A stretch of DNA of 64,000 nt. Origin: Natronorubrum tibetense GA33 (lineage in GTDB: Archaea > Halobacteriota > Halobacteria > Halobacteriales > Natrialbaceae). Of this stretch, positions 3,239 through 64,000 are shown piece after piece; the stretch's first letter is position 1; each line of letters begins with the position of its first letter. A program made the translations under genes and the position numbers. The notes under the pieces are model-generated. The model saw only the letters and a program-made list of their open reading frames with translations, was not told the DNA's origin and made no database searches. Location of the stretch: NCBI RefSeq assembly GCF_000383975.1, contig NZ_KB913021.1:62001-126000 (forward strand). Reading direction: 5' to 3'.

Positions 3239-4723
3239 ATGGGACGAAAGGGACGTAGAGCAGGTTCGAATCATCCAGAAGGTGAAAAGGATCGCAAATC
3301 CTCCTCTGCTGCTCCTGATAATCCCGAGTCGATGGGTGAGGAGATAGATACGTCACAGTCGACGTTTGAGGATGGCTCGGAACTCGCCGATTCTTCTCAA
3401 GAGGCAACAAACGGTGGTGGCATCTCAATCCGGGATCGACTACAAACTGAGTCGTCTGGGGGGGTCTTCGCGAACAAAGACCTCGTTCGGTCAGATACCA
3501 TCATCGACGAGGATCGTATCGTCGGTCGTGATGACCAACTGGGCCGTGTCGTCGACAATCTGAAACCCGTGCTCCAGAACGAAGGCATCCCAGATATGCT
3601 TCTGAGTGGTCCTTCTGGAACTGGGAAGTCGCTCATCATTCATGCAGTCTGCAAACAGATCGTCGAACTGTGTGAATCTCAAGGCAAGACCTTCGGGGTC
3701 ATTTCAATCAACTGCGAGGGGCCGAAGACAGCAGATCGAGCTGTCTATCGGTTAGTTAAAGCTGCTGCCGACGACCTCGGCGTTGATCCTGGTGTTCCCC
3801 AAACCGGGGTCTCAACGGATCAGAAGTTGGAGCGACTGTACGAACTGATGCGCGAGTACTACGACGGTGTCATCTTCATTCTCGATGAAATCGATATGCT
3901 CGAGGGACCGTATCAGGAAGCAGAGTACAATTCTCTCATCTACCAGCTTTCACGGGCTCGAAAACTCGCCGATTTTGATGGGCCGATCTCACTCACGACT
4001 ATCACGAATTACGCCGATTTTATGAAGGACCTCAACAGCCGCGCACAGAGTTCTTACAATCCTGATGATATCTTCTTCGACGATTACGATGCGAACCAAC
4101 TCCGTAGTATTCTCCACAACCGACGAGATGCCTTCAAGCCAGAATCACTCTCAGATGACGTCGTTCCGCTTGTTGCCGCGTTCGGATCCCAAACACATGG
4201 TGATGCACGGAAAGCAATTGATCTCCTCAGATGGGCTGGCGAATTAGCCGAGCGGCGTGGAGCTGACACTGTTACCGAGACTGATGTCCGTGAAGCCCAG
4301 GAGAAATACACCGAAAATCGCAAACTACGCCATATTAGCGGGATATCCACTCAAAAGAAACTCTCCATCTACGCTGTGGCGGCTACTGCCCACTACGCAA
4401 GAGAACATCCTGAGTGGATACCTGCTGGACCTGCGTTCAAGACGTACCAATTCATTGCTGATACGATGGATTCGGATCAGTACAGTCGCGAGACGTTCGT
4501 AAATCACGTCACAGAGCAGAGTACGTACGGGGTATTGGACTCCGAGCGTCGAGGCAAGGGGCGAGGCAGAGGAGTGCATATGTATTTCTCCCTCTCCGAG
4601 GACCCGGAAACGATTATGGAGACGATTCGTGAGGATTCCCGGTTCGAAGATCTAGCTCACGAAGAGGCGACTATTAGCGCGGTTGTCCGCGAACGGCTGA
4701 AGCAGTTCCGGAGCAAGAACTAA
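3239..4723 (+). CDS. Orc1/Cdc6 replication initiator
   Basis: 494 residues. AAA+ core: Walker A GPSGTGKS at about 124-131, Walker B VIFILDEIDML at about 211-221, a sensor-1-like LTTITNYADF, and sensor-2 region GDARKAIDLLRWAGELAERR. A winged-helix C-terminus follows (about 390-494). The first 80 residues are a polar, low-complexity extension, making it longer than the usual 400-residue family member. Orc1/Cdc6 proteins bind ORBs, open the origin and load MCM. The boxes on both sides (1084-3109 and 4747-4929) are its obvious targets. This is the initiator of the local origin, not necessarily of the whole replicon. Confidence 0.95.
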   Translation: MGRKGRRAGSNHPEGEKDRKSSSAAPDNPESMGEEIDTSQSTFEDGSELADSSQEATNGGGISIRDRLQTESSGGVFANKDLVRSDTIIDEDRIVGRDDQLGRVVDNLKPVLQNEGIPDMLLSGPSGTGKSLIIHAVCKQIVELCESQGKTFGVISINCEGPKTADRAVYRLVKAAADDLGVDPGVPQTGVSTDQKLERLYELMREYYDGVIFILDEIDMLEGPYQEAEYNSLIYQLSRARKLADFDGPISLTTITNYADFMKDLNSRAQSSYNPDDIFFDDYDANQLRSILHNRRDAFKPESLSDDVVPLVAAFGSQTHGDARKAIDLLRWAGELAERRGADTVTETDVREAQEKYTENRKLRHISGISTQKKLSIYAVAATAHYAREHPEWIPAGPAFKTYQFIADTMDSDQYSRETFVNHVTEQSTYGVLDSERRGKGRGRGVHMYFSLSEDPETIMETIREDSRFEDLAHEEATISAVVRERLKQFRSKN

Positions 4724-53469: not shown

Positions 53470-54396
53470 ATGCTACTTGGGACGTACAAGCAGTCTGGGG
53501 GAAGGCACCACAACCATCTTGTCTTCATCATACTGAACGCCGAAGGTCATGGCCTTCGTCGAACCGAACATGAGTACTACAAATGTGAGTGCGGCAATCT
53601 GCTAAGCCCGCAAGAACTGGATCTCGGGGACCGTCAGAAGCAGTCTTGGCCAAATTGTAAGTCGTGGCGAGAGGGGGGACAAAAGTGGTGTCCAGAATGT
53701 GGTGAACGGTTTTCCATGTCTCAGGAACAATGGGTTCGTCCGCGTGGATACGAAGCTGTCCCAGACGACGAATACGACAAAATCACCGACGAGACCCGGG
53801 AGGTTGTCTTCAACCAGCATGATGGAGAGTGTATTGCCTGCGACAAGTCCGCTGATGCAGTTCATCGGATAGTTCCCCCGCGATACGGGGGGTCTGGTGA
53901 GCCCACCAATTTAGTCCCGGTATGTGACGAACATCGTCACCGGCGAGGACATATGTTCCTCGACGTTCTGATGCCGTGGGAGTGGGAGGATGTGAGCGAT
54001 TTGGATTGGGAGTCGTACGTCGAACGCTTGCGTGACCAATATTCAGACGGTGACTCGACCGCTGCAAATAGAATTGTGAGCCTCTGTGAGGATATGCTTG
54101 AGCGGGGGAAGCCACAGAATCCGAACCCCTACGCCAAGAGCAATCTAGGCGACCCAGTCGATATAGACGACGCGGTCGACGAGGATGAGCCAGCTACTTC
54201 AGAGAACATCAAGGGCATAATCAGACGCGTCGGTGAGCAGTATCCCGATGCTGCTGGAGCACCTGAGCAAGATGTGTTGTTGGTGATGCGAGACCGATTT
54301 GAGATGGATAAGGAGAGGGCGTCATCTACCATTGAATCACTGCAGAATAAAGGCGAAGTCTATCGTCCAACCGATACCACTCTGAAAGTTGTGTAG
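53470..54396 (+). CDS. HNH nuclease with zinc ribbon and MCM-type winged-helix tail
   Basis: Up to 308 residues; the start is uncertain because the first 35 residues look noncoding. Domains: CECGNL ... CPECGERF zinc ribbon (about 39-80), HNH at about 118-160 (GECIACDKSADAVHRIVPPR, then NLVPVCDEHRHRRG), a linker, and a C-terminal winged helix (ENIKGIIRRVGEQYPDAAGA, KERASSTIESLQNKGEVYRP) like the C-terminal domain of MCM helicases. Followed 61 nt later by a HhH protein. May be a replication-linked or defence nuclease. Confidence 0.82.
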   Translation: MLLGTYKQSGGRHHNHLVFIILNAEGHGLRRTEHEYYKCECGNLLSPQELDLGDRQKQSWPNCKSWREGGQKWCPECGERFSMSQEQWVRPRGYEAVPDDEYDKITDETREVVFNQHDGECIACDKSADAVHRIVPPRYGGSGEPTNLVPVCDEHRHRRGHMFLDVLMPWEWEDVSDLDWESYVERLRDQYSDGDSTAANRIVSLCEDMLERGKPQNPNPYAKSNLGDPVDIDDAVDEDEPATSENIKGIIRRVGEQYPDAAGAPEQDVLLVMRDRFEMDKERASSTIESLQNKGEVYRPTDTTLKVV

Positions 54397-54457
54397 GGCG
54401 CGAGAAACACGTTGACTGTCCGAAAAAACGATATGTCCGTGCTAGGCACGTCCCAGT

Positions 54458-55156
54458 ATGTCAAACATCGACGGACTAACTTCGTCGAGTGATTTACGTC
54501 ACAAGCTCGAAGATTACGGCTTCGACGATCCAATGAAAGTCGCAGTTGCCAGTCCGGGTGAACTGTCGAATACGCTTGGAATCGGTGAATCACAAGCAGA
54601 ACAACTCATCGAGACTGCACGTGAGCAGGCTACTCCCGTCGGATTTAAGTCTGGTACAGAGGTCGAGTCGCCGCCAGATCTTACCGAAGCGGATGTGGTC
54701 GATGATGTTGAAGGGTGGAACATCCGCCGTCATACCCCCGATCGGATCTCGTGGACATCACCATCGGATTACTCCGTTGTCATCAAAGCGGTTCCCACGC
54801 GCGGTGGTGACCAGCCGCGAACTTACGAGGTTCGTGGTATTCTCCCGCCGGCAGGCGAGCATAACCCGCAGCAGAGCAAGAAAGAAGAGCGTGTGCTGAA
54901 GCGTGAAATGGACACAGTCGAGGAAGCGGTCGGGTACGCGGTAGGCTGGATGGAAACTCATCTGGTCGAGTTTGAGCAAGACTTGACCGAGTTTACTGGC
55001 GTCAGTGAACGAACGGCAGAGTACCTCTTGCTGGAACACAAAATTAAGAATCACCAACAACTCTACGAACTCTGGAAGGAATCAACGCTTAAAGCCGTCG
55101 TCGGGAAGCAGTGGCACGACGACCTCGAGGAGGAAATGAAGGGGAAATTCGAATAG
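54458..55156 (+). CDS. Helix-hairpin-helix protein next to the HNH nuclease
   Basis: 232 residues. HhH at the N-terminus (about 10-55: LEDYGFDDPMKVAVASPGEL, NTLGIGESQAEQLIETA) like the Rad51/RadA N-domain. The middle has strands with EGWNIRRHTPDRISWTSPSD and VVIKAVPTRG. A second HhH-like helical pair is at the C-terminus (LTEFTGVSERTAEYLLLEHK). No catalytic site; likely a DNA-binding partner of the HNH protein. Confidence 0.75.
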   Translation: MSNIDGLTSSSDLRHKLEDYGFDDPMKVAVASPGELSNTLGIGESQAEQLIETAREQATPVGFKSGTEVESPPDLTEADVVDDVEGWNIRRHTPDRISWTSPSDYSVVIKAVPTRGGDQPRTYEVRGILPPAGEHNPQQSKKEERVLKREMDTVEEAVGYAVGWMETHLVEFEQDLTEFTGVSERTAEYLLLEHKIKNHQQLYELWKESTLKAVVGKQWHDDLEEEMKGKFE

Positions 55157-55238: not shown

Positions 55239-56750
55239 CTAGAACTCCTCTCCCGTAGATCCTACCTCATCCAGTTGGTCGTACATCTCGTCTGGGAATG
55301 GGAGACTTCCCCAGATGGAGTATGGGCACTGCTCCTGCCCGATACAGTATCGCTGCATATCGTCGTTGTCGCAGTTCATCGGAAGCGGGGTGTCGCCACC
55401 GATCGTGTTCGAGAACTCATAGCGAATCTGGTAGTCAGTAACCTGTTCGTCGTACCAGGGCCACCGCGAGAAGACGCTCTTGAGATCCGCGACAATCGTC
55501 TCGAGGTCACTATCCAGGTACTGTGGCAGCCACATCACCATCCGGGCGAAGTTGTACAGGTCTTTTCGGACTGGTTTCTTCTCGTGGAGGCGTTCGGCCA
55601 TGTTCGCCATACAGGGGAGTTCAAACAGGTCTTCGATTGACTCGACGGTGAGTGGCTGGACGCCTCGCGAAGACTCCTGAATCCGATAGTGGTTCGTATT
55701 TCCGTGCTGCCGGATAGTGAGGCTCCGGTGGTCGCGCTGGGATGCAAGGAGATTTCCAAGACTCCGGGGACTCGAGATGCGATTACATACGTCCCGCTTC
55801 CAGTTCGCTTCCGGATCGTACGCTTCCACTGCTTCAAACAGCTCCTTCGCCGAGTGGAACTCTCCCAGCGTGGTGACTTCGTCTGGAGCGTCTCGAATCG
55901 CGTCCCGTAGCACACGGATAGTTCGCTCACCGGGGTCCCAGTCTCGCCAGATTCGTTCGTGGTGTCCTGTCTCGATGAAGCGGTCGATACGCTCTGTGAT
56001 GGCCGATTCATTTGTCGTCAGCCACGTGAGCTGGTCTTCCGAGAGGTTCTCTTCTTGGACTCGCAGGAGCTTTTTGAACGCGCGTCTGGCGTACTCGCGA
56101 TACTTCGTATCGAAATCGCCGACTGGTACGTAGAGGTGGTTGTTCTTAACGCGAGTGAGCAGTTCCCCATCCTCTCCTGTCTCAGTGTCGGCGTGAACGA
56201 GGCAGTTCCTCGACGCCGCAGCCATCGGGATTTCGAGGTACAACCCACCACCGAACTCGGGCATTTCTTTGACTCCCGTACAAACACGACCGGGGTGCGG
56301 ACCATCCTCTCCGGGGGCTTTCGCGTACAGCACCTCTGCTATATCCTGTTGAAGACTCCCATCGCCGAACTCTCGAAGGAGAGAGGCGAGATTGTTGACG
56401 TAGAGTTCGCGAATATCGTAGAGGACCTGCACCTTTCGCGATGGAGCGTGCTCGAACTTCGGGTGTGCCTTGACGCAGATCGCACTCAACGTCGCGAGCA
56501 CGGCGAGTGTTCCCGGTTCATCGACGAAGGGCTCTTCTGCGGCATTGGCTCTGATGTCTTCTTTGAACGCGGCTGTCCCGAATCGCTCGAGGTCGTTCAA
56601 CAGGTCTTCTGGTTGATCTTCGTCGTCGACGATGTAGCGATTGTAGCCCCGCGTGAACAGCTGGTTGATCCGCGTCGTGCCGTATTCCAGCGGGAGCGTC
56701 GCAACGCGATAGGCGGTACGCTCGTCCTTGACAGGCGTCGACTGAGTCAT
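55239..56750 (-). CDS. Primase large-subunit-like protein (PriL-type, Fe-S)
   Basis: 503 residues. The C-terminal third carries MANMAERLHEKKPVRKDLYN and cysteines in CMANM (about 395), CDNDDMQRYCIGQEQCPYSI (about 465-484), the four-cysteine pattern of PriL/PriX Fe-S domains. The N-terminal part is helical. The start overlaps the stop of the PriS-like gene (ATGA), so the two form a complex-coding pair. Works as the element's own primer maker, by inference. Confidence 0.78.
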   Translation of the reverse strand: MTQSTPVKDERTAYRVATLPLEYGTTRINQLFTRGYNRYIVDDEDQPEDLLNDLERFGTAAFKEDIRANAAEEPFVDEPGTLAVLATLSAICVKAHPKFEHAPSRKVQVLYDIRELYVNNLASLLREFGDGSLQQDIAEVLYAKAPGEDGPHPGRVCTGVKEMPEFGGGLYLEIPMAAASRNCLVHADTETGEDGELLTRVKNNHLYVPVGDFDTKYREYARRAFKKLLRVQEENLSEDQLTWLTTNESAITERIDRFIETGHHERIWRDWDPGERTIRVLRDAIRDAPDEVTTLGEFHSAKELFEAVEAYDPEANWKRDVCNRISSPRSLGNLLASQRDHRSLTIRQHGNTNHYRIQESSRGVQPLTVESIEDLFELPCMANMAERLHEKKPVRKDLYNFARMVMWLPQYLDSDLETIVADLKSVFSRWPWYDEQVTDYQIRYEFSNTIGGDTPLPMNCDNDDMQRYCIGQEQCPYSIWGSLPFPDEMYDQLDEVGSTGEEF

Positions 56751-57631
56751 GACTGGAGCACCTCCGGTGTCGCAGACCGAACGTCGAAGTCCGGGCTCTC
56801 GATCGGCGTGACGATACTACAGACGTCAGCGTGCAACGAGTAGGGTAGCCGGGCGACCCTCCGACGATCGGCGGTAACCACGGGATCGATGGGTATCTCG
56901 TAGGTGTCTTGCAGAAGGTCGTTCAGCACTTCTCGACTCTTGGCGTCGTACCGATGAGCGGGATCAGTATCGAGGAGATAGACGTGAACGCCCTGGCCGC
57001 TGTACACTACCATCGTGTCTTCGGCGTTGAAGTCGTCCTCGAAGATCTCTCGCACCTCGAAGCCGTACTCGATGGCCCGTTCTATATCCTCGAAAGAATA
57101 CGGGTAGCCTGCTGGGTCTGCTTCGAGAATTCCCGCGGTATCGAGCAGCTCCTCGCTATCCCCCATAGATTCCTCATCCAATCTCGCTTGCGCTGCCCGT
57201 TTTCGGGCTATCGTTTTCGCGTCGATATCGACGAGGAGCACCCACGGCCGTTCCCAGTGATCGAGGGCGTAGTAGACCGCATCAGGACACGGGTCTGGTT
57301 TGTCAAGCAAGTCGGGATCTGCGAGCGCGAAGTCACTCCGATCGAGTGGATCGTTTCGTGCTGGATGGCGGATGAACTCGAGGACGTCATCGAAGTCGTG
57401 GAACGCCGCCGTGATCCGCTCACCTGAGACGTTCGTCTGCCACGTATCCCGTCGGATAAAGTCCTTGTCTGGGACTCCATCTTTCCGTACCGGGTGGGGT
57501 TCTCGAAACGCAAGCGCGTACTGTTTTGGCCCCTTCGCTGTAATGAACGACGGGAGTTCGTCACGGTACGGGGGGAACTCCTCGGCGTAGTACCTGTAGA
57601 TCTCCTCGGGAGTCGCCTGGCGCCACGTCAT
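56747..57631 (-). CDS. Primase small-subunit-like protein (AEP/PriS-type)
   Basis: 294 residues. AEP signature: metal-binding WVLLVDIDAKTIARKRAAQA (D-x-D, about 130-149), the SGQGVHVYLLD motif (about 210-220, catalytic H), and PVVTADRRRVARLPYSLHAD with the third acidic and basic residues. Archaeal PriS makes RNA/DNA primers. This copy is shorter than the chromosomal PriS and sits in the transfer operon: 4-nt overlaps with both neighbours. Confidence 0.85.
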   Translation of the reverse strand: MTWRQATPEEIYRYYAEEFPPYRDELPSFITAKGPKQYALAFREPHPVRKDGVPDKDFIRRDTWQTNVSGERITAAFHDFDDVLEFIRHPARNDPLDRSDFALADPDLLDKPDPCPDAVYYALDHWERPWVLLVDIDAKTIARKRAAQARLDEESMGDSEELLDTAGILEADPAGYPYSFEDIERAIEYGFEVREIFEDDFNAEDTMVVYSGQGVHVYLLDTDPAHRYDAKSREVLNDLLQDTYEIPIDPVVTADRRRVARLPYSLHADVCSIVTPIESPDFDVRSATPEVLQS

Positions 57632-60600
57632 GAATTGAACTCCTGATCAAGTTTGTTGAAGCTCCGAATCGTCGTCAGCCCAGCTGCATCGAACGATTCA
57701 ACGGCCTCTCGAATGTCGGAGAACGATCGGGCTGCACGGCCGCTCACACTGCTTTCTATTCGGTCGGCCTCTGCGAGATGGTCTAACACCTCGACGGCGG
57801 TCTCACGTCTGTTGAACGCCCAGACAGCGTTTGCGTCCACCCGACTCTGCTTGTCGTAGTCGTCGACCGGCGCGTGTTTGTTGTTGCTCGCGAGTTCGGC
57901 TTCACCGACCCACACGAGTTCTCCGTCAGTATCGAGACCGGCAACGTCGAACACCGTATCCTCATCGTACTCGTAGTATGGTTCGACCTTCTCGACATCG
58001 TCGCGGGCTTCTAACCACAGTCCGAGCAGCTTCACACCGACCTTGTGCGGCGTCTTCTCACCGATATCCCCCTGACCAGGGCCGACCTTGAGCTTCTGGC
58101 CGAGCAGTTCCCGCCCTGCCGGGAGTACGGTGTAGTACTTCCGACCGCACGCTCGTCCTTCCTCCAGCAGGTCTTGATCGACGAGCCGTTGCACGTCCAG
58201 GTCGTCAAAGTCGTTCTTGAACGCACTCATCGAATCCAAGAGTGTGTGGTCCGGGGCGTCACCATTCATCACGTCGAGGATGCGAGTCAGGAATCGGACG
58301 TCGTCATGAGTGAGTCCGCGTCGTCGAAGCTCGTCATCTGGGACGGTTACACCACCAGCCTGTACTGGCGACTGTAATGGCGATGATCCGTTCTCGTCGA
58401 CAGCTGTCTCCACCTCTTCACCGGTTGGCTCTTCTGACGCAGTTGACTCGGGATCTCCAAACAGTAAGTTGGTGGTGTCCGCTTTGTTCTCTCCCTCGTC
58501 GTCGGCTACTGAACCACTGGTTGCCTGTCCGATGAACGACGACTGCGTCGAGTCCACAGGGCTAGCCGATTCTGCGGATATCGACCGTGCATCGTTCGGC
58601 CTACTTCCCCATCCTTCATTGTCGGCTGCCTCTGATTCGCTAGAGGTCTCAGCAAGTCCGTACTGGCTCTGTGTTTGCTCCGACAGCCGAGGGAGGGCCA
58701 CGGTCTCGAAGTGGTCCTCCTGTTCGACAGAGAGCGACGAGCCGCTCTCTGGATGGCCGGCTGCTATCGGGAGCGGCTTCACCGAAAACGGGGCTGGACC
58801 CGTCTCCCCGAATGACGGACTCGGGAGTTGCGCGATCCATTCCCCACTGGGGAGCGTGTTGATCCGATTTCGGAGGTCAGTCGGACTCAGGTCTTCGTGG
58901 GCCAGCGACTCGGCGAGGTCGCGCTCGATGGAGATGTTCCCGATAAGCTTCGTTTTGATGTTGTTGAGGACCTCGTCGTAGGCACGCTCGCTTCGATTCC
59001 TGACCTGTCCGGGGAACTGCATCACCAGTCCCATGCTCAGGCCGAACGACCGACCCTGGGGAAGCAGTTGCTCGGAAACGAGTTTCGTCGAGGCGACGGG
59101 GGCTGCCTCCTCGATGATGAGGTTGGTGAGATTCTCGTAGTCTGTCTCCCCATCACGTCGACGCACCCGCACCGCGTCCCAGAGATTGCTCAACAGGAGG
59201 AGTGTAATTGCTCGCTGAGCCTCCGGCCGGAGATCACCTAAGTCGAACAAGATCGTGGCATCTTCGTCGAGGAACTCGCGGAAGTCGAATCGGTTGTCGA
59301 CGTAGTCGCCGTGATCGCCCTGTTCCGGAACGTGACTGAAGATACGTCGCAGGTGCGCGTCTTCTCTGAGTTTATCGAGGCGATTCCCGACGGCGTCCAT
59401 CGACACCTGGAATTGCCGATCATCTTTCTCGAAGTGGCGCGTAAGCGACTCCTCGACATTTTGGTTCTCGGCAGCCACAGGAGGAACTATCCGCTCGCGT
59501 TGCATCTGGAGTGCAGCCGCAAAGAGATCATCGAGGCCGAAGGCGTCACTACCGTATTCCTCGTCGAAGAGCGCCTTGATGAGGTAGCTGAGAATCTCGT
59601 TGGCGACGAACGCCTGTTCATACTGTTTGCGACCCATAACCATCCGCATGATGTCGTGGAAGTGATCGACCTTGTCTTGGATCGCATCCTCGCGCCTCCA
59701 CCCAGCTTCAAGTGTCGAACGAATATCGAAGAAAGAGAAAGCAGGGAGGGTGTCCGGAACGCAGAACTGATAGGTGTTGTCCAATCCGCTGAACCGTTCG
59801 TAGTGACAACGAAGATAGTTCGCACACATCCCGTCGCCTTTCGGATCGACGATAATAACCGGCCCACCTGTCGTCTCTCTGAGAGACAGCGCATCATTGA
59901 TGATGGCTTTCGACTTTCCACCCCCAGTTGATGCAAATCGGCCGTAGTGTCTCGTTAAGAGATTTGGCGGAATCCGTATCGGGTCTGGTTGGATGGTACC
60001 ATTTTCATCAAGTGCATATCCGATCGCCATCCCCTCACGGAACTGTGCCATCAAATCAGGATTCGGTCGTGGCAGTGGATTGCGACTGCGCTGCTCTGAA
60101 CGCGCACCTCGAGAGCCCTCAACGGTCAAGTCATCGGCGCTCGGAACAACGATCACGTTCGCGAGTTCGTCCGCATTGAACACGAAATCTGGCCGATTCT
60201 TCCCGCTACCGGCGATCATCTCTCCGTTGAGAACTCGCTCGAGATGGCGTTGAGCTCGTTTTTCTTTCTGCCTCGAAAGGAATCCTTTCTCTCGGATACG
60301 CCGGCCGCGGAGTTCGTAAAACGGGCCATCGAGTGGATCGAGTGCTGCCTTCAGCTGCTCGAGTTCTGCCCGGATCTCAACATCGTCGTCAGGAGCCATT
60401 GCAACGGCTCGAGCATTGACGGTGAACGTTCGACGTGGGTGTTTGCCGTCGATTCTCTGAATACGGCTTTTGGTCTCCTGAGACAGCTCTCGATCTGCAG
60501 GATCTGCATCGACAGGCTCGAGCCACGAGCCGATGAGGTCTTCAGCCCAGGTATCGCGTCCCTCCTTGAGATCCATTTTTCGGATTTCAGCATCATCCCG

Positions 60601-61263
60601 CCAGTCAGGTTTGCACTGCCAGAGAATCTGATAGACAGTGGGTGCGGTCATCTCATGGAGAACCTCAACAACGGCCGAAAGCGGTGGTCGCTCTGATTCG
60701 TATTCCTCATCGGGTTCGTCGACGACAAACGGCGCGATGGTCGTCATCCAGTCTTTTTTGCGGCCAGTTTTACCGAGCCACTCGACCCCCAGTGGTGAGG
60801 GCTTCGGGGTTTCGTCTTCTATTTCACCTTCATCGAAACCTTCCAAATCACTCTCTCCCGAATCAGTTCGAGGATTCTCTCGATTCAACGCTCCCTGTTC
60901 CTCAGACTCGAGATCTTCCCCCGCCAAGTCGGGTTCAGGTGTGAGAACCGCCTCGAGATCGAGTTCCGTTCGCATAACCGTGAATGTGGTTGGGTAAATC
61001 GACCGGAGGCGCTTTTCAAGCGTGTTGAGGTGTTCTTCCTGGTTGACCCCATAGTAGAACTCTACTGGTGCATCAGGGCCTGCAGAGACGGCGAGGAATT
61101 CGAACGTCGGTGGAGCTGTGTCCACTCTAGGACTCACCCGGCTCCAGAAACTCTCTGCCGCTGGGTTCGACAGTTTATGAAGGCTCTCAAGAGCGGCTGG
61201 AATATCCGACCGACGGAGTGGTCCCGACGTCGGGGTCACTTTCAGATACTCGTTGTTACTCAT
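57628..61263 (-). CDS. VirD4/TraD-type coupling ATPase with nuclease-like C-terminus
   Basis: 1211 residues from ATG 61263, which overlaps the VirB4 stop; a GTG 30 nt earlier is in frame. HerA/FtsK-type ATPase: Walker A FASTGGGKSKAIINDALSLR at about 455-474, the VDPKGDGMCANYLR loop, Walker B LTNLIIEEAAPVASTKLVSE. An acidic low-complexity linker follows, a winged helix (about 1010-1090), then FDVAGLDTDGELVWVGEAEL ASN, a D-xn-E-x-E pattern like PD-(D/E)XK nucleases. It would pump the transferred strand into the secretion channel. The tail is unusual for this family. Confidence 0.88.
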   Translation of the reverse strand: MSNNEYLKVTPTSGPLRRSDIPAALESLHKLSNPAAESFWSRVSPRVDTAPPTFEFLAVSAGPDAPVEFYYGVNQEEHLNTLEKRLRSIYPTTFTVMRTELDLEAVLTPEPDLAGEDLESEEQGALNRENPRTDSGESDLEGFDEGEIEDETPKPSPLGVEWLGKTGRKKDWMTTIAPFVVDEPDEEYESERPPLSAVVEVLHEMTAPTVYQILWQCKPDWRDDAEIRKMDLKEGRDTWAEDLIGSWLEPVDADPADRELSQETKSRIQRIDGKHPRRTFTVNARAVAMAPDDDVEIRAELEQLKAALDPLDGPFYELRGRRIREKGFLSRQKEKRAQRHLERVLNGEMIAGSGKNRPDFVFNADELANVIVVPSADDLTVEGSRGARSEQRSRNPLPRPNPDLMAQFREGMAIGYALDENGTIQPDPIRIPPNLLTRHYGRFASTGGGKSKAIINDALSLRETTGGPVIIVDPKGDGMCANYLRCHYERFSGLDNTYQFCVPDTLPAFSFFDIRSTLEAGWRREDAIQDKVDHFHDIMRMVMGRKQYEQAFVANEILSYLIKALFDEEYGSDAFGLDDLFAAALQMQRERIVPPVAAENQNVEESLTRHFEKDDRQFQVSMDAVGNRLDKLREDAHLRRIFSHVPEQGDHGDYVDNRFDFREFLDEDATILFDLGDLRPEAQRAITLLLLSNLWDAVRVRRRDGETDYENLTNLIIEEAAPVASTKLVSEQLLPQGRSFGLSMGLVMQFPGQVRNRSERAYDEVLNNIKTKLIGNISIERDLAESLAHEDLSPTDLRNRINTLPSGEWIAQLPSPSFGETGPAPFSVKPLPIAAGHPESGSSLSVEQEDHFETVALPRLSEQTQSQYGLAETSSESEAADNEGWGSRPNDARSISAESASPVDSTQSSFIGQATSGSVADDEGENKADTTNLLFGDPESTASEEPTGEEVETAVDENGSSPLQSPVQAGGVTVPDDELRRRGLTHDDVRFLTRILDVMNGDAPDHTLLDSMSAFKNDFDDLDVQRLVDQDLLEEGRACGRKYYTVLPAGRELLGQKLKVGPGQGDIGEKTPHKVGVKLLGLWLEARDDVEKVEPYYEYDEDTVFDVAGLDTDGELVWVGEAELASNNKHAPVDDYDKQSRVDANAVWAFNRRETAVEVLDHLAEADRIESSVSGRAARSFSDIREAVESFDAAGLTTIRSFNKLDQEFNS

Positions 61264-63394
61264 GGTTCGATTCACCTCCGTGTTTACCGCCATCAGTCTG
61301 TGGTGGAGTTGAGACCTGGCGTGAGGTTGTTGGGTCAGTCTTCATAGATAGCTCTGTGGATGTGTCTGCTGAACGGCCTGGCAACTCAGTCTGTGACTGA
61401 GATTTCGGATCGAAGTCGATCACAGCTGTCTCGTCCTCCATCGCTCGGACTTCGATTCCTCGCCACTCACCGTCGACACCGACGAGCGCCTCCGAATAGC
61501 CCGTCCGATCGTTGCCAGGAACGGCTTCCTGGACGAAGCGCATCTGTGCCGAGTTGAGGCCGAACTCGTTGGCCCACTCACGATCCATCCCGTCGAGGTG
61601 GTGGAACTGCTTGATCGCACACTGGTCGATGATCGCCTCGGACTCTGGATGCTGGAAGAACTCGTCGACGGTCTGGGTGACGAGTCGGATCGAGAGGTTG
61701 TGATGTCGGTGGTGGCGGAAGACAATCTCGAGGTACTCGAGACTCGCCGCGTCCTGCATGATGTAGCGTGCCTCGTCGATGACGAAGACGACCTCTTTGT
61801 CCGTCTCTTTCGCACGCTCGTAGACTAGCGAGATCAGCAACTGCATGACGAGACTCGTGCTCCCACCGAGACTGCCCTCCTGCTGGGCGAGGTCGAGATA
61901 GATCACTTTCTCGTCGCGGATGTCAAATTCGGTCTCTCGACCCAGATTCTCATACCGGCCGTCTTCCGCGAACGGTCGAAGCTGATCGATGAGCCACGTC
62001 GCGTCTTCACCAATCTTCGACGCTTCCTCGTCAGTCCGCACGACGTACTCCGTCGGCGTCTCGACCATCTCCTCAAGGATATCGAGGACATCCCGCATCG
62101 TCGGGCTCTCGTTGTGATGAGTCGCGATATCGTCGGTGATTCCGTTGCGTGAATAGGCACGCTCGATCGCGGTCTCCAACGTTGTCCGGCGGTCACCGAG
62201 TGTGATTCCCCGGAGCGCGAAGTAGTTCGAGAGGAAGCTCATCACGCTATCGAGCTTTTCGCGATACGGGCTGGCGTCCTTGCCCATTGCCCTCTGAACG
62301 CGCTCGGGAGTCGGCTTGATCTCGAGCGGGTTCAGTCCCATATCGCCGCCGATCGTGATTCGTTCGCCACCGAGTGCTTCGGCTACGCCGGCCCAGTTGT
62401 TCAACGGCTCGAGGATGATCCCGATACGGTCCTCGCTTTGTTCGATCGAGCGGATGAAGTTCTGCTTCGAGCCGAACGATTTCCCAGAGCCTGGGTCACC
62501 GATCGTGAACATCGCATAGCCATTCTCTCGAGCGAACGGGTCGATGACAACAGGGCTCTGGTTCTTCCAATGAACGCCAAACTCGACGCCGCCGTCCTCA
62601 AGGATTGTGGCGTTGTGTGGCGACGCGAGCAACGCACCGACCGCACCACCGAGTGCTGTGGCCTCCCGGCCGAACGGGTTGGGACCGATTGGGGCTGCAG
62701 CCTGGATGGCGAGGTCTTGTTTGCAAATTGCTGTCTTCGGCGAGAGCCCAGCGGGTTGCTCACGAAGCCGGCTCCGAACTGTCCGGACGGCGTCACGAAG
62801 CTCGTCACGTGACTCCGCTCGAACCGTAATGAACATGCCTTGCTCGAACACCCGGCTCCCGTTCTCAACGCTCTTGTACGTCGACAGCGCCTCGTTGGCT
62901 CGCTCCTGAAGATAGCTCCCACGGACAGTACGCTCGAGGTCAGCATCGGCCTGGAGGTCGTCGGCCACTCGCTGGAGTTCGTCTCGAGCCTGCTGCTGAC
63001 TCTTCGGGGTGATATGGACCGTCAGATCGAACTCGACGTCCGTGAGCTCGAAGAGTTCGGTCAGATAGCCGTCTTTCGGGTAATCCGGGTAATCGGCGAT
63101 GTAGAGTGTGGACGTCCACTGATCACCGACACGAGCAGTACGTGTATCCCACTCGATCGCCGCCGGCGCGACGACGTGTTGGTGATGTTCGGCGATGTCG
63201 TCGAGGATCTGCCCTTCCTCGAGGCCGTCTTCCACGGTCGTCTCCTCGAGGAGATCTGCGAGTTCGACTTCTTCGACGTCCTCGGCTCGCCAACGATCCC
63301 ACCCCACCTTCGCGAGAAGCGTGAGCAATGCCGTTGCACCGATATAGAGGGAAAGCCCAGCCTGTGTCCCTGGATCAGGGAGTGCCTCGATCAT
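61256..63394 (-). CDS. VirB4/TraC-type conjugation ATPase
   Basis: 712 residues. A hydrophobic segment near the N-terminus (LSLYIGATALLTLLAKVGWD). Walker A FTIGDPGSGKSFGSKQNFIR at about 295-314, Walker B KEVVFVIDEARYIMQDAASL at about 535-554, and RLVTQTVDEFF, typical of VirB4. It powers assembly of the type IV secretion channel. Four-base overlaps with both neighbours show a single operon. Confidence 0.93.
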   Translation of the reverse strand: MIEALPDPGTQAGLSLYIGATALLTLLAKVGWDRWRAEDVEEVELADLLEETTVEDGLEEGQILDDIAEHHQHVVAPAAIEWDTRTARVGDQWTSTLYIADYPDYPKDGYLTELFELTDVEFDLTVHITPKSQQQARDELQRVADDLQADADLERTVRGSYLQERANEALSTYKSVENGSRVFEQGMFITVRAESRDELRDAVRTVRSRLREQPAGLSPKTAICKQDLAIQAAAPIGPNPFGREATALGGAVGALLASPHNATILEDGGVEFGVHWKNQSPVVIDPFARENGYAMFTIGDPGSGKSFGSKQNFIRSIEQSEDRIGIILEPLNNWAGVAEALGGERITIGGDMGLNPLEIKPTPERVQRAMGKDASPYREKLDSVMSFLSNYFALRGITLGDRRTTLETAIERAYSRNGITDDIATHHNESPTMRDVLDILEEMVETPTEYVVRTDEEASKIGEDATWLIDQLRPFAEDGRYENLGRETEFDIRDEKVIYLDLAQQEGSLGGSTSLVMQLLISLVYERAKETDKEVVFVIDEARYIMQDAASLEYLEIVFRHHRHHNLSIRLVTQTVDEFFQHPESEAIIDQCAIKQFHHLDGMDREWANEFGLNSAQMRFVQEAVPGNDRTGYSEALVGVDGEWRGIEVRAMEDETAVIDFDPKSQSQTELPGRSADTSTELSMKTDPTTSRQVSTPPQTDGGKHGGESNHE

Positions 63395-64000
63395 TGATCG
63401 ATCCTCCGTTGATGATCGACGACCGGACGATCACGGATCGCATCGGCTCCATCTCCATACTCGTGTTCCTCGCCGTTCCAGAAGTCCATCGAAAGGACGA
63501 ACAGTTCGACCGTCGTCAGCCGATGAGCCGACCACCCTGCTGCCTTCTGGATGAACTCCGTCTGGAGACCATGACAACGGTTCTCGAGTTTCTCGAACAT
63601 GGCTGCCCGGATCTCCGCATCGGTCATGTCGTTGCGACGGGTCACGAACGGGTTGAACAGGAAACCGACCACCGGAAACGCGGTGAGCTTCTCTGCAGGG
63701 GATTGTTCGTCCTGATACCGGTCGTAGACCTCGAAGGGGTCGACTTCGACGCCGATGAAATACCGAACTTGTTGGGTTCCCTCGAGGTCTCGTGGACGTT
63801 GCTCGCGATACTCCTCGAGTAACTCTTTGAAGATCGGGTTTTGCTTGACGTCACTGTCGGTAAGCCGCCCATCGATTCGCTCGATCAGCTTCTCGACTGG
63901 GAACGATCGCGTTGTGGCGTGGAATTTGAGCGTGAAGTCGAGTTCCTTATTCGCGAACTCCTCGCCGAGTTGCTGGATCTGCGCCCAGTCACCGGACATC
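63391..64000 (-). CDS. Partner of VirB4 in the transfer operon (5' end outside window)
   Basis: At least 203 residues; the frame is open to the edge, and the Met at 63999 may be internal. Text such as LDFTLKFHATTRSFPVEKLI, IGVEVDPFEVYDRYQDEQSP and VVGFLFNPFVTRRNDMTDAE resembles the N-terminal module that in other systems is fused to VirB4/TraC ATPases. The stop overlaps the VirB4 start (ATGA). A split VirB4 N-domain is the best guess. Confidence 0.75.
   Translation of the reverse strand, partial: MSGDWAQIQQLGEEFANKELDFTLKFHATTRSFPVEKLIERIDGRLTDSDVKQNPIFKELLEEYREQRPRDLEGTQQVRYFIGVEVDPFEVYDRYQDEQSPAEKLTAFPVVGFLFNPFVTRRNDMTDAEIRAAMFEKLENRCHGLQTEFIQKAAGWSAHRLTTVELFVLSMDFWNGEEHEYGDGADAIRDRPVVDHQRRIDQ

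What the first reader, a model, noticed from the sequence alone, without database searches (positions are those of the whole stretch)
53470..55156. HNH nuclease with an MCM-like winged helix, paired with a HhH protein
The first gene joins a zinc ribbon, an HNH site (CIACDK ... HRIVPPR ... CDEHRHRRG) and a tail resembling the MCM C-terminal winged helix. The second has HhH domains at both ends. The pair runs opposite to its neighbours, between cargo and transfer genes, a usual place for defence islands. A nuclease aimed at replication forks or foreign DNA is possible.
Basis: partly seen in the sequence, partly recalled or inferred. Interest (0 to 1): 0.62.

Follow-up and report, generated by a model that had tools for sequence, protein, structure and literature searches.

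The report
Plasmid pair with borrowed MCM/RadA parts
Two neighbouring genes on a salt-loving archaeon's plasmid encode small proteins that carry docking parts of the host's replication helicase (MCM) and recombination protein (RadA) without their motors, and the 'nuclease' part of the first looks catalytically dead, so they are more likely adaptors or decoys than DNA-cutting defence enzymes.

Summary
The two genes are real. P1 (53470-54396+) has a cysteine-rich N-terminus, an HNH-like zinc fold and a C-terminal winged helix that belongs with archaeal MCM (phmmer to the host's own MCM E 2.8e-5; top three structural matches are MCM C-termini, Z 10.3/9.7/9.5). P2 (54458-55156+) begins with a RadA N-terminal domain (E 2e-10), including the FxxA/G self-association motif (GFKSG), but has no ATPase. 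The nuclease reading fails its own refutation test: the HNH general-base His is Arg in all 13 family members found, while the other HNH proteins inspected keep His. P1 is under purifying selection (dN/dS 0.17). The pair recurs in order and spacing in Haloferax massiliensis, where P2 is a 25-codon stump; otherwise it is rarely adjacent. Relatives of both genes sit in haloarchaeal defence islands and on plasmids. One plasmid operon joins a P2 relative, an MCM without Walker motifs and an orphan MCM winged helix. Best reading (confidence 0.4): non-catalytic docking or decoy proteins aimed at Orc1/Cdc6 (P1) and RadA (P2), the two routes by which haloarchaea start replication. Partners and outcome are inferred. 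No matching named family or defence model was found.

The parts
53470..54396 (+). P1: Cys-rich N-terminus + degenerate HNH (treble-clef) + MCM-type winged helix, 308 aa
   Evidence: ORF; 13 homologues; dN/dS 0.17 vs Haloferax massiliensis
53578..53706 (+). Cys-rich region of P1 (residues 37-79; invariant C39, C41, C63, C74, C77), zinc-ribbon-like
   Evidence: invariant columns in A1; no significant family hit
53794..53952 (+). HNH-like zinc fold of P1 (residues 109-161)
   Evidence: IscB HNH phmmer 1e-4; PHROG HNH families 2e-5
53866..53868 (+). R133: Arg at the position of the HNH general-base His
   Evidence: Arg in 13/13 family members; His in IscB, in ten haloarchaeal HNH proteins and in three phage HNH proteins
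54187..54393 (+). MCM C-terminal winged helix of P1 (residues 240-308)
   Evidence: PF21120 2.9e-5; host MCM 2.8e-5; AF2 region matches archaeal MCM C-termini, Z 10.3, 9.7, 9.5
54458..55156 (+). P2: RadA N-terminal domain without ATPase, predicted beta-rich middle, HhH-like C-terminus, 232 aa
   Evidence: ORF; relatives
54491..54667 (+). RadA N-terminal HhH domain of P2 (residues 12-70)
   Evidence: TIGR02236 2.1e-10 and PRK04301 5.1e-11; structural match to RadA Z 9.0
54641..54655 (+). GFKSG (residues 62-66): RadA FxxA/G self-association motif
   Evidence: same place as GFETG of host RadA; GFxx[GA] in 14/14 long and 2/2 short relatives that include this region
54965..55072 (+). C-terminal HhH-like segment of P2 (residues 170-205)
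   Evidence: sequence pattern; weak HhH hits in relatives only
55239..63999 (-). convergent neighbours: primase-associated protein, PriS-like primase, HerA/TraG-like ATPase, VirB4-like ATPase, and one uncharacterised ORF at the window end
   Evidence: NCBIfam hits incl. NF038197 3.2e-257 and VirB4 family 7.9e-41

Best explanation
P1 and P2 are non-catalytic docking (decoy/adaptor) proteins of a haloarchaeal conjugative-type plasmid, built from interaction parts of the host's own machines. P1: a degenerate HNH zinc fold, probably kept for DNA or protein binding, carries MCM's C-terminal winged helix, the part that archaeal MCM uses to bind the ATPase domain of origin-bound Orc1/Cdc6; P1 would dock on Orc1/Cdc6 and compete with, or stand in for, MCM. 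P2: carries RadA's N-terminal DNA-binding domain and FxxG motif but no ATPase; it would dock on a RadA subunit and cap, load or redirect the RadA filament, as BRC repeats, RAD51 paralogues and plasmid PsiB do by other means. Haloarchaea start replication either through Orc/MCM or through RadA-dependent recombination, so the pair could tune both, in favour of the incoming plasmid or against rival DNA. Shown: gene reality, domain identity, degenerate HNH site, absence of the MCM and RadA ATPases, purifying selection on P1. Inferred: partners, direction of effect, joint action.
For: MCM winged helix in P1 by sequence and structure; RadA N-domain and FxxG in P2 by sequence and structure; GFxx[GA] kept in 16/16 relatives that include the region, against 0.13 per 300 aa background; G62-F63 invariant in an alignment where most members are only 20-24% identical to P2; R133 in 13/13 P1 family members, His in controls; dN/dS 0.17 over P1 and 0.28 over its winged helix; P1-P2 order and spacing shared with Haloferax massiliensis. 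Independent parallel: the G091/G177 operon of P2 relative + MCM without Walker A/B motifs + 177-aa protein with an MCM winged helix. Literature: MCM WH binds Orc1/Cdc6 ATPase domain (PMC5333045; PMC12141716); FxxA drives RadA self-association (PMC5117717); origin-less Haloferax depends on RadA (PMC7776575); PsiB binds RecA (PMC2958807).
Against: No interaction data. In most loci P1 relatives lack the winged helix (9 of 13) and the P1 and P2 families are apart, so joint action is weakly supported. P2's linker diverges right after GFKSGTEV, so the contacts of the RadA oligomerisation helix may be missing. In the long P2 relatives the RadA resemblance is remote (hhalign E 0.008, probability 5%). 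AlphaFold models are low-confidence outside the winged helix and the RadA domain. P2 selection could not be measured well (synonymous sites saturated against L062; only 8 changes against N. bangense, dN/dS 0.84).
Confidence: 0.4

Rival explanations
1. P1 and P2 are DNA-binding accessory or regulatory proteins of defence islands (for example switches for the neighbouring systems); the MCM and RadA modules serve only as generic DNA-binding folds.
For: Relatives sit in slots between defence genes; P1 or P2 relatives occupy the same slot between the CoiA-like 368-aa gene and the c6 gene in HMA-like islands; winged helix and HhH are common DNA-binding folds.
Against: Both modules are specifically MCM-like and RadA-like, and the FxxG motif, a protein-protein epitope in RadA, is kept; in the window the nearest large genes are transfer and primase genes, not a defence system.
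Confidence: 0.25
2. P2 is a recombination mediator that helps RadA (RadB- or BRCA2-like), and P1 helps recruit MCM to plasmid DNA: helper rather than decoy, for plasmid establishment or recombination-dependent replication.
For: Same domain facts; long P2 relatives stand divergently beside a 368-aa protein that looks CoiA-like (family assignment by eye); primase and transfer genes next door.
Against: Direction of effect cannot be read from sequence; the MCM without Walker motifs in the parallel operon fits interference at least as well as help.
Confidence: 0.2
3. One reading: P1 is an active HNH nuclease aimed at replication forks or foreign DNA (defence).
For: HNH similarity to IscB and phage HNH proteins; zinc-site residues C121, C124, C152, H155 and N147 invariant; H132 kept in the four winged-helix members.
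Against: General-base His is Arg in 13/13; metal-site residues 132 and 156/157 not conserved in the nine members without the WH; PADLOC has no model.
Confidence: 0.1
4. The two genes are unrelated passengers brought together by chance in a recombination hotspot.
For: P1 or P2 lost or truncated in close relatives (N. bangense L037, Hfx. massiliensis L076); intact adjacent pair seen only here.
Against: P1 under purifying selection; same order and spacing in two genera; P2-family/MCM-WH association recurs in another plasmid type.
Confidence: 0.05

Closest known systems
Archaeal MCM C-terminal winged helix (PF21120)
   Same: sequence and fold of P1 residues 240-308
   Different: P1 lacks the MCM N-domain, AAA+ motor and lid
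RadA/RAD51 N-terminal domain with FxxA linker
   Same: P2 residues 12-70 and the GFKSG motif
   Different: no RecA-fold ATPase; followed by a predicted beta-rich segment and a HhH-like end of its own
HNH (His-Me finger) nucleases, e.g. OgeuIscB
   Same: zinc-binding CxxC...CxxH, GG and N residues
   Different: general-base His replaced by Arg; no RuvC or guide-RNA parts
PsiB (conjugative plasmid anti-SOS protein, binds RecA)
   Same: proposed logic: plasmid protein acting on the host recombinase
   Different: no sequence relation claimed or tested; P2 is made of the recombinase's own domain
BRCA2 BRC repeats / RAD51 paralogue caps
   Same: proposed docking through FxxA on the recombinase
   Different: binding by P2 not shown; no LFDE module looked for

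Membership tests
HNH nuclease | general-base His on the beta-hairpin | tested here: not met
   Arg133 in the window protein and all 13 family members; His in IscB, haloarchaeal and phage HNH controls
HNH nuclease | structural zinc residues and Asn | tested here: met
   C121, C124, C152, H155, N147 invariant
HNH nuclease | DNA cleavage | not testable with these tools
   needs protein
MCM helicase | C-terminal winged helix | tested here: met
MCM helicase | AAA+ motor with Walker A/B | tested here: not met
   P1 is 308 aa with no MCM P-loop hit
RadA recombinase | N-terminal HhH domain and FxxA/G linker | tested here: met
RadA recombinase | RecA-fold ATPase core | tested here: not met
   matches to RadA models stop at residue 70 of 232
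IscB / Cas9-type RNA-guided nuclease | RuvC domain and HNH above family cut-off | tested here: not met
   NF040563 20 bits vs cut-off 175, HNH part only
Known defence system protein (PADLOC-DB) | match to a model | tested here: not met
   no hit at 0.01 for P1 or P2
PsiB-like plasmid recombinase inhibitor | binds and inhibits host recombinase | not testable with these tools
   functional analogy only

The most novel reading that the evidence does not exclude
A haloarchaeal plasmid strategy in which motor-less copies of host MCM and RadA parts act as a pair of decoys that control both ways the host can start DNA replication (Orc1-MCM origins and RadA-dependent replication), with the MCM-without-Walker-motifs operon in other plasmids as a second form of the same strategy.
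Probability: 0.2. Interest if true: 0.8.

Novelty: new variant of a known kind. Interest (0 to 1): 0.5.

Why it matters
Haloferax can live without origins by relying on RadA, so proteins that could dock on Orc1/Cdc6 and on RadA would be tools to ask how archaea choose between the two replication modes. They would also be archaeal counterparts of plasmid genes such as psiB, of which I found no example described in archaea in the papers searched. The case also shows that an 'HNH' label in defence islands can hide a degenerate, probably non-cutting fold.

Tried and rejected
Active HNH nuclease: rejected as main reading on the His-to-Arg change. IscB kinship beyond the HNH fold: far below cut-off. 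Viral origin: no P1 or P2 relative in IMG/VR scans and no P2 match among phages. P2 remnant after P1 in Halobacterium TGN-42-S1: none found. hhalign of long P2 relatives to RadA N-domain: in register up to GFxxG but weak (E 0.008, probability 5%, Neff 1.2), so used only as support. AlphaFold of whole P1 and P2: low confidence overall (64.6 and 52.2), only the WH and RadA domains used; in the VIA list for P1 no HNH match appeared because the WH filled the list, so this says nothing about the HNH fold. P2 dN/dS against L062 saturated. Literature searches gave no paper describing this pair.

Full report
What is there. The window is part of a 166-kb contig (G000:C5) of a haloarchaeal genome. P1 (53470-54396) and P2 (54458-55156) are consecutive + strand ORFs, 61 bp apart, convergent with a - strand block encoding an archaeal primase-associated protein, a PriS-like primase, a HerA/TraG-like ATPase and a VirB4-like ATPase. 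They are genes and not chance ORFs: P1 has a relative in Haloferax massiliensis with 86% protein identity and dN/dS 0.17 (winged helix alone 0.28), and more distant relatives in other haloarchaea.

P1. The HNH-like part (residues 109-161) matches the HNH of OgeuIscB (phmmer 1e-4) and PHROG HNH families (2e-5). In the IscB alignment 'yHHvvP' faces 'vHRivP': the second His, which by established knowledge of HNH enzymes is the general base, is Arg133 in P1. An alignment of 13 distinct family members has Arg there in all 13. The preceding metal-site position is His only in the four members with the winged helix and Lys, Val or Tyr in the rest; positions 156/157 vary likewise; the structural zinc residues and Asn147 are invariant. 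Ten haloarchaeal HNH proteins recovered as weak hits have His-His, and three phage HNH relatives keep His at the base position. So the fold is kept and the active site is not; residual activity in the winged-helix clade is unlikely but not excluded.

The P1 tail. Residues 240-308 match Pfam's archaeal MCM winged helix (2.9e-5, 1.7 bits under the cut-off) and the host's own MCM (2.8e-5). In an AlphaFold model that is poor overall (pLDDT 64.6) but good in this region (77-92), the three best of 997 aligned chains are C-termini of archaeal MCMs (Z 10.3, 9.7, 9.5; 66-67 residues, rmsd 1.8-2.5). Outside MCM itself such domains are rare: in 146 haloarchaeal genomes nearly all hits are in MCM-length frames, with a handful in short frames.

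P2. Residues 12-70 are a RadA N-terminal domain (TIGR02236 2.1e-10; host RadA 43% identical over the matched stretch). The match runs into the linker: P2 ...PVGFKSGTEV..., host RadA ...IGGFETGTTV.... This is the FxxA-type epitope that drives RadA/RAD51 self-association and that BRC repeats mimic (PMC5117717). Even a single-sequence model of this region matches RadA structures best (Z 9.0). No ATPase follows; instead there is a predicted beta-rich segment and a HhH-like end. Relatives of about 300 aa (20-24% identical) share the last two parts and all 14 carry GFxx[GA] at the same boundary.

Is the pair a unit? In Haloferax massiliensis P1 is followed, at the same spacing and with conserved intergenic DNA, by the first 25 or so codons of P2 (76% identical) and then a tyrosine integrase gene: a P2 stump. 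In Natronorubrum bangense the opposite happened: P1 and the first 63 or so codons of P2 are gone, while the rest of P2 and the adjoining DNA with the primase and transfer genes remain. In Halobacterium sp. GN101 relatives of both genes lie in one island, one gene apart. Elsewhere the families are separate. So the two were together in two genera, but each is readily lost.

Context of relatives. P1 relatives without the winged helix stand beside HMA-like systems (HmaB/HmaC-like proteins, DUF262) or beside an Mre11-Rad50-NurA-HerA cassette (three genomes). Long P2 relatives stand in similar islands, and one lies beside a BrxHII gene on this same contig, about 17 kb beyond the pair. Most telling, in genomes G091 and G177 a P2 relative is followed by an MCM in which the Walker A and B motifs are lost (LLLGPSNGTVDRL, GLHEA against LLVGDPGVAKSQL, LIDEF in the best PDB match) and then by a 177-aa protein ending in an MCM winged helix. 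P2-type proteins and motor-less MCM parts thus come together independently.

Mechanism. In archaea the MCM winged helix binds the ATPase domain of Orc1/Cdc6 and this is needed for origin firing (PMC5333045; PMC12141716). RadA self-associates through FxxA (PMC5117717), and Haloferax without origins depends on RadA (PMC7776575). The simplest function for the parts kept, given the parts missing, is docking: P1 on Orc1/Cdc6, P2 on RadA. Whether that hinders the host (decoy), helps the plasmid (recruitment, mediator) or arms a defence cannot be read from sequence. A conjugative precedent for hindering the recombinase is PsiB, which binds RecA (PMC2958807).

Known or new. Neither protein belongs to a named family in NCBIfam, PADLOC or Pfam beyond the modules named above; several homologues are annotated 'hypothetical protein'. 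I rate it a new variant of a known kind: mobile-element proteins made from host machine parts. The nuclease-defence reading is not supported, the domain observation is confirmed, and the decoy/adaptor reading is a testable inference with confidence 0.4.

Noticed in passing
L070 10560-12656 and L072 7184-9280: MCM homologues without Walker A/B motifs (pseudo-MCM) in an operon between a P2 relative and a 177-aa protein ending in an MCM winged helix.
   Followed up: partly
L074 7550-11698 (G000:C5, beyond the window): A long P2 relative and a 368-aa CoiA-like gene next to a BrxHII (BREX type) helicase gene on the same contig as the window.
   Followed up: partly
L058, L059, L060: Mre11-like, Rad50-like, NurA and HerA genes as a four-gene cassette with a PLD-domain protein and a P1 relative, in three haloarchaeal genomes; possibly an undescribed defence or repair island.
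   Followed up: partly
L034 5235-6341 and seven relatives: A 368-aa protein divergent from the long P2 relatives has a Cys-rich start and a D...ExQ pattern resembling CoiA-type PD-(D/E)xK nucleases; no significant Pfam hit.
   Followed up: partly
L076 9992-11307: Haloferax massiliensis: a 25-codon P2 stump lies next to a tyrosine integrase gene.
   Followed up: yes
L037 8001-8513: Natronorubrum bangense: similarity to P2 starts abruptly at the end of the RadA-like domain; P1 absent.
   Followed up: yes
G050:C1:69483, G066:C4:23804, G057:C17:220787, G078:C5:229726: Further MCM winged helices in frames much shorter than MCM; nature not examined.
   Followed up: no
window 3239-4723: ORF clusters with an Orc1/Cdc6 of another plasmid (L035 9254-10564), so the contig seems to carry its own initiator.
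   Followed up: no
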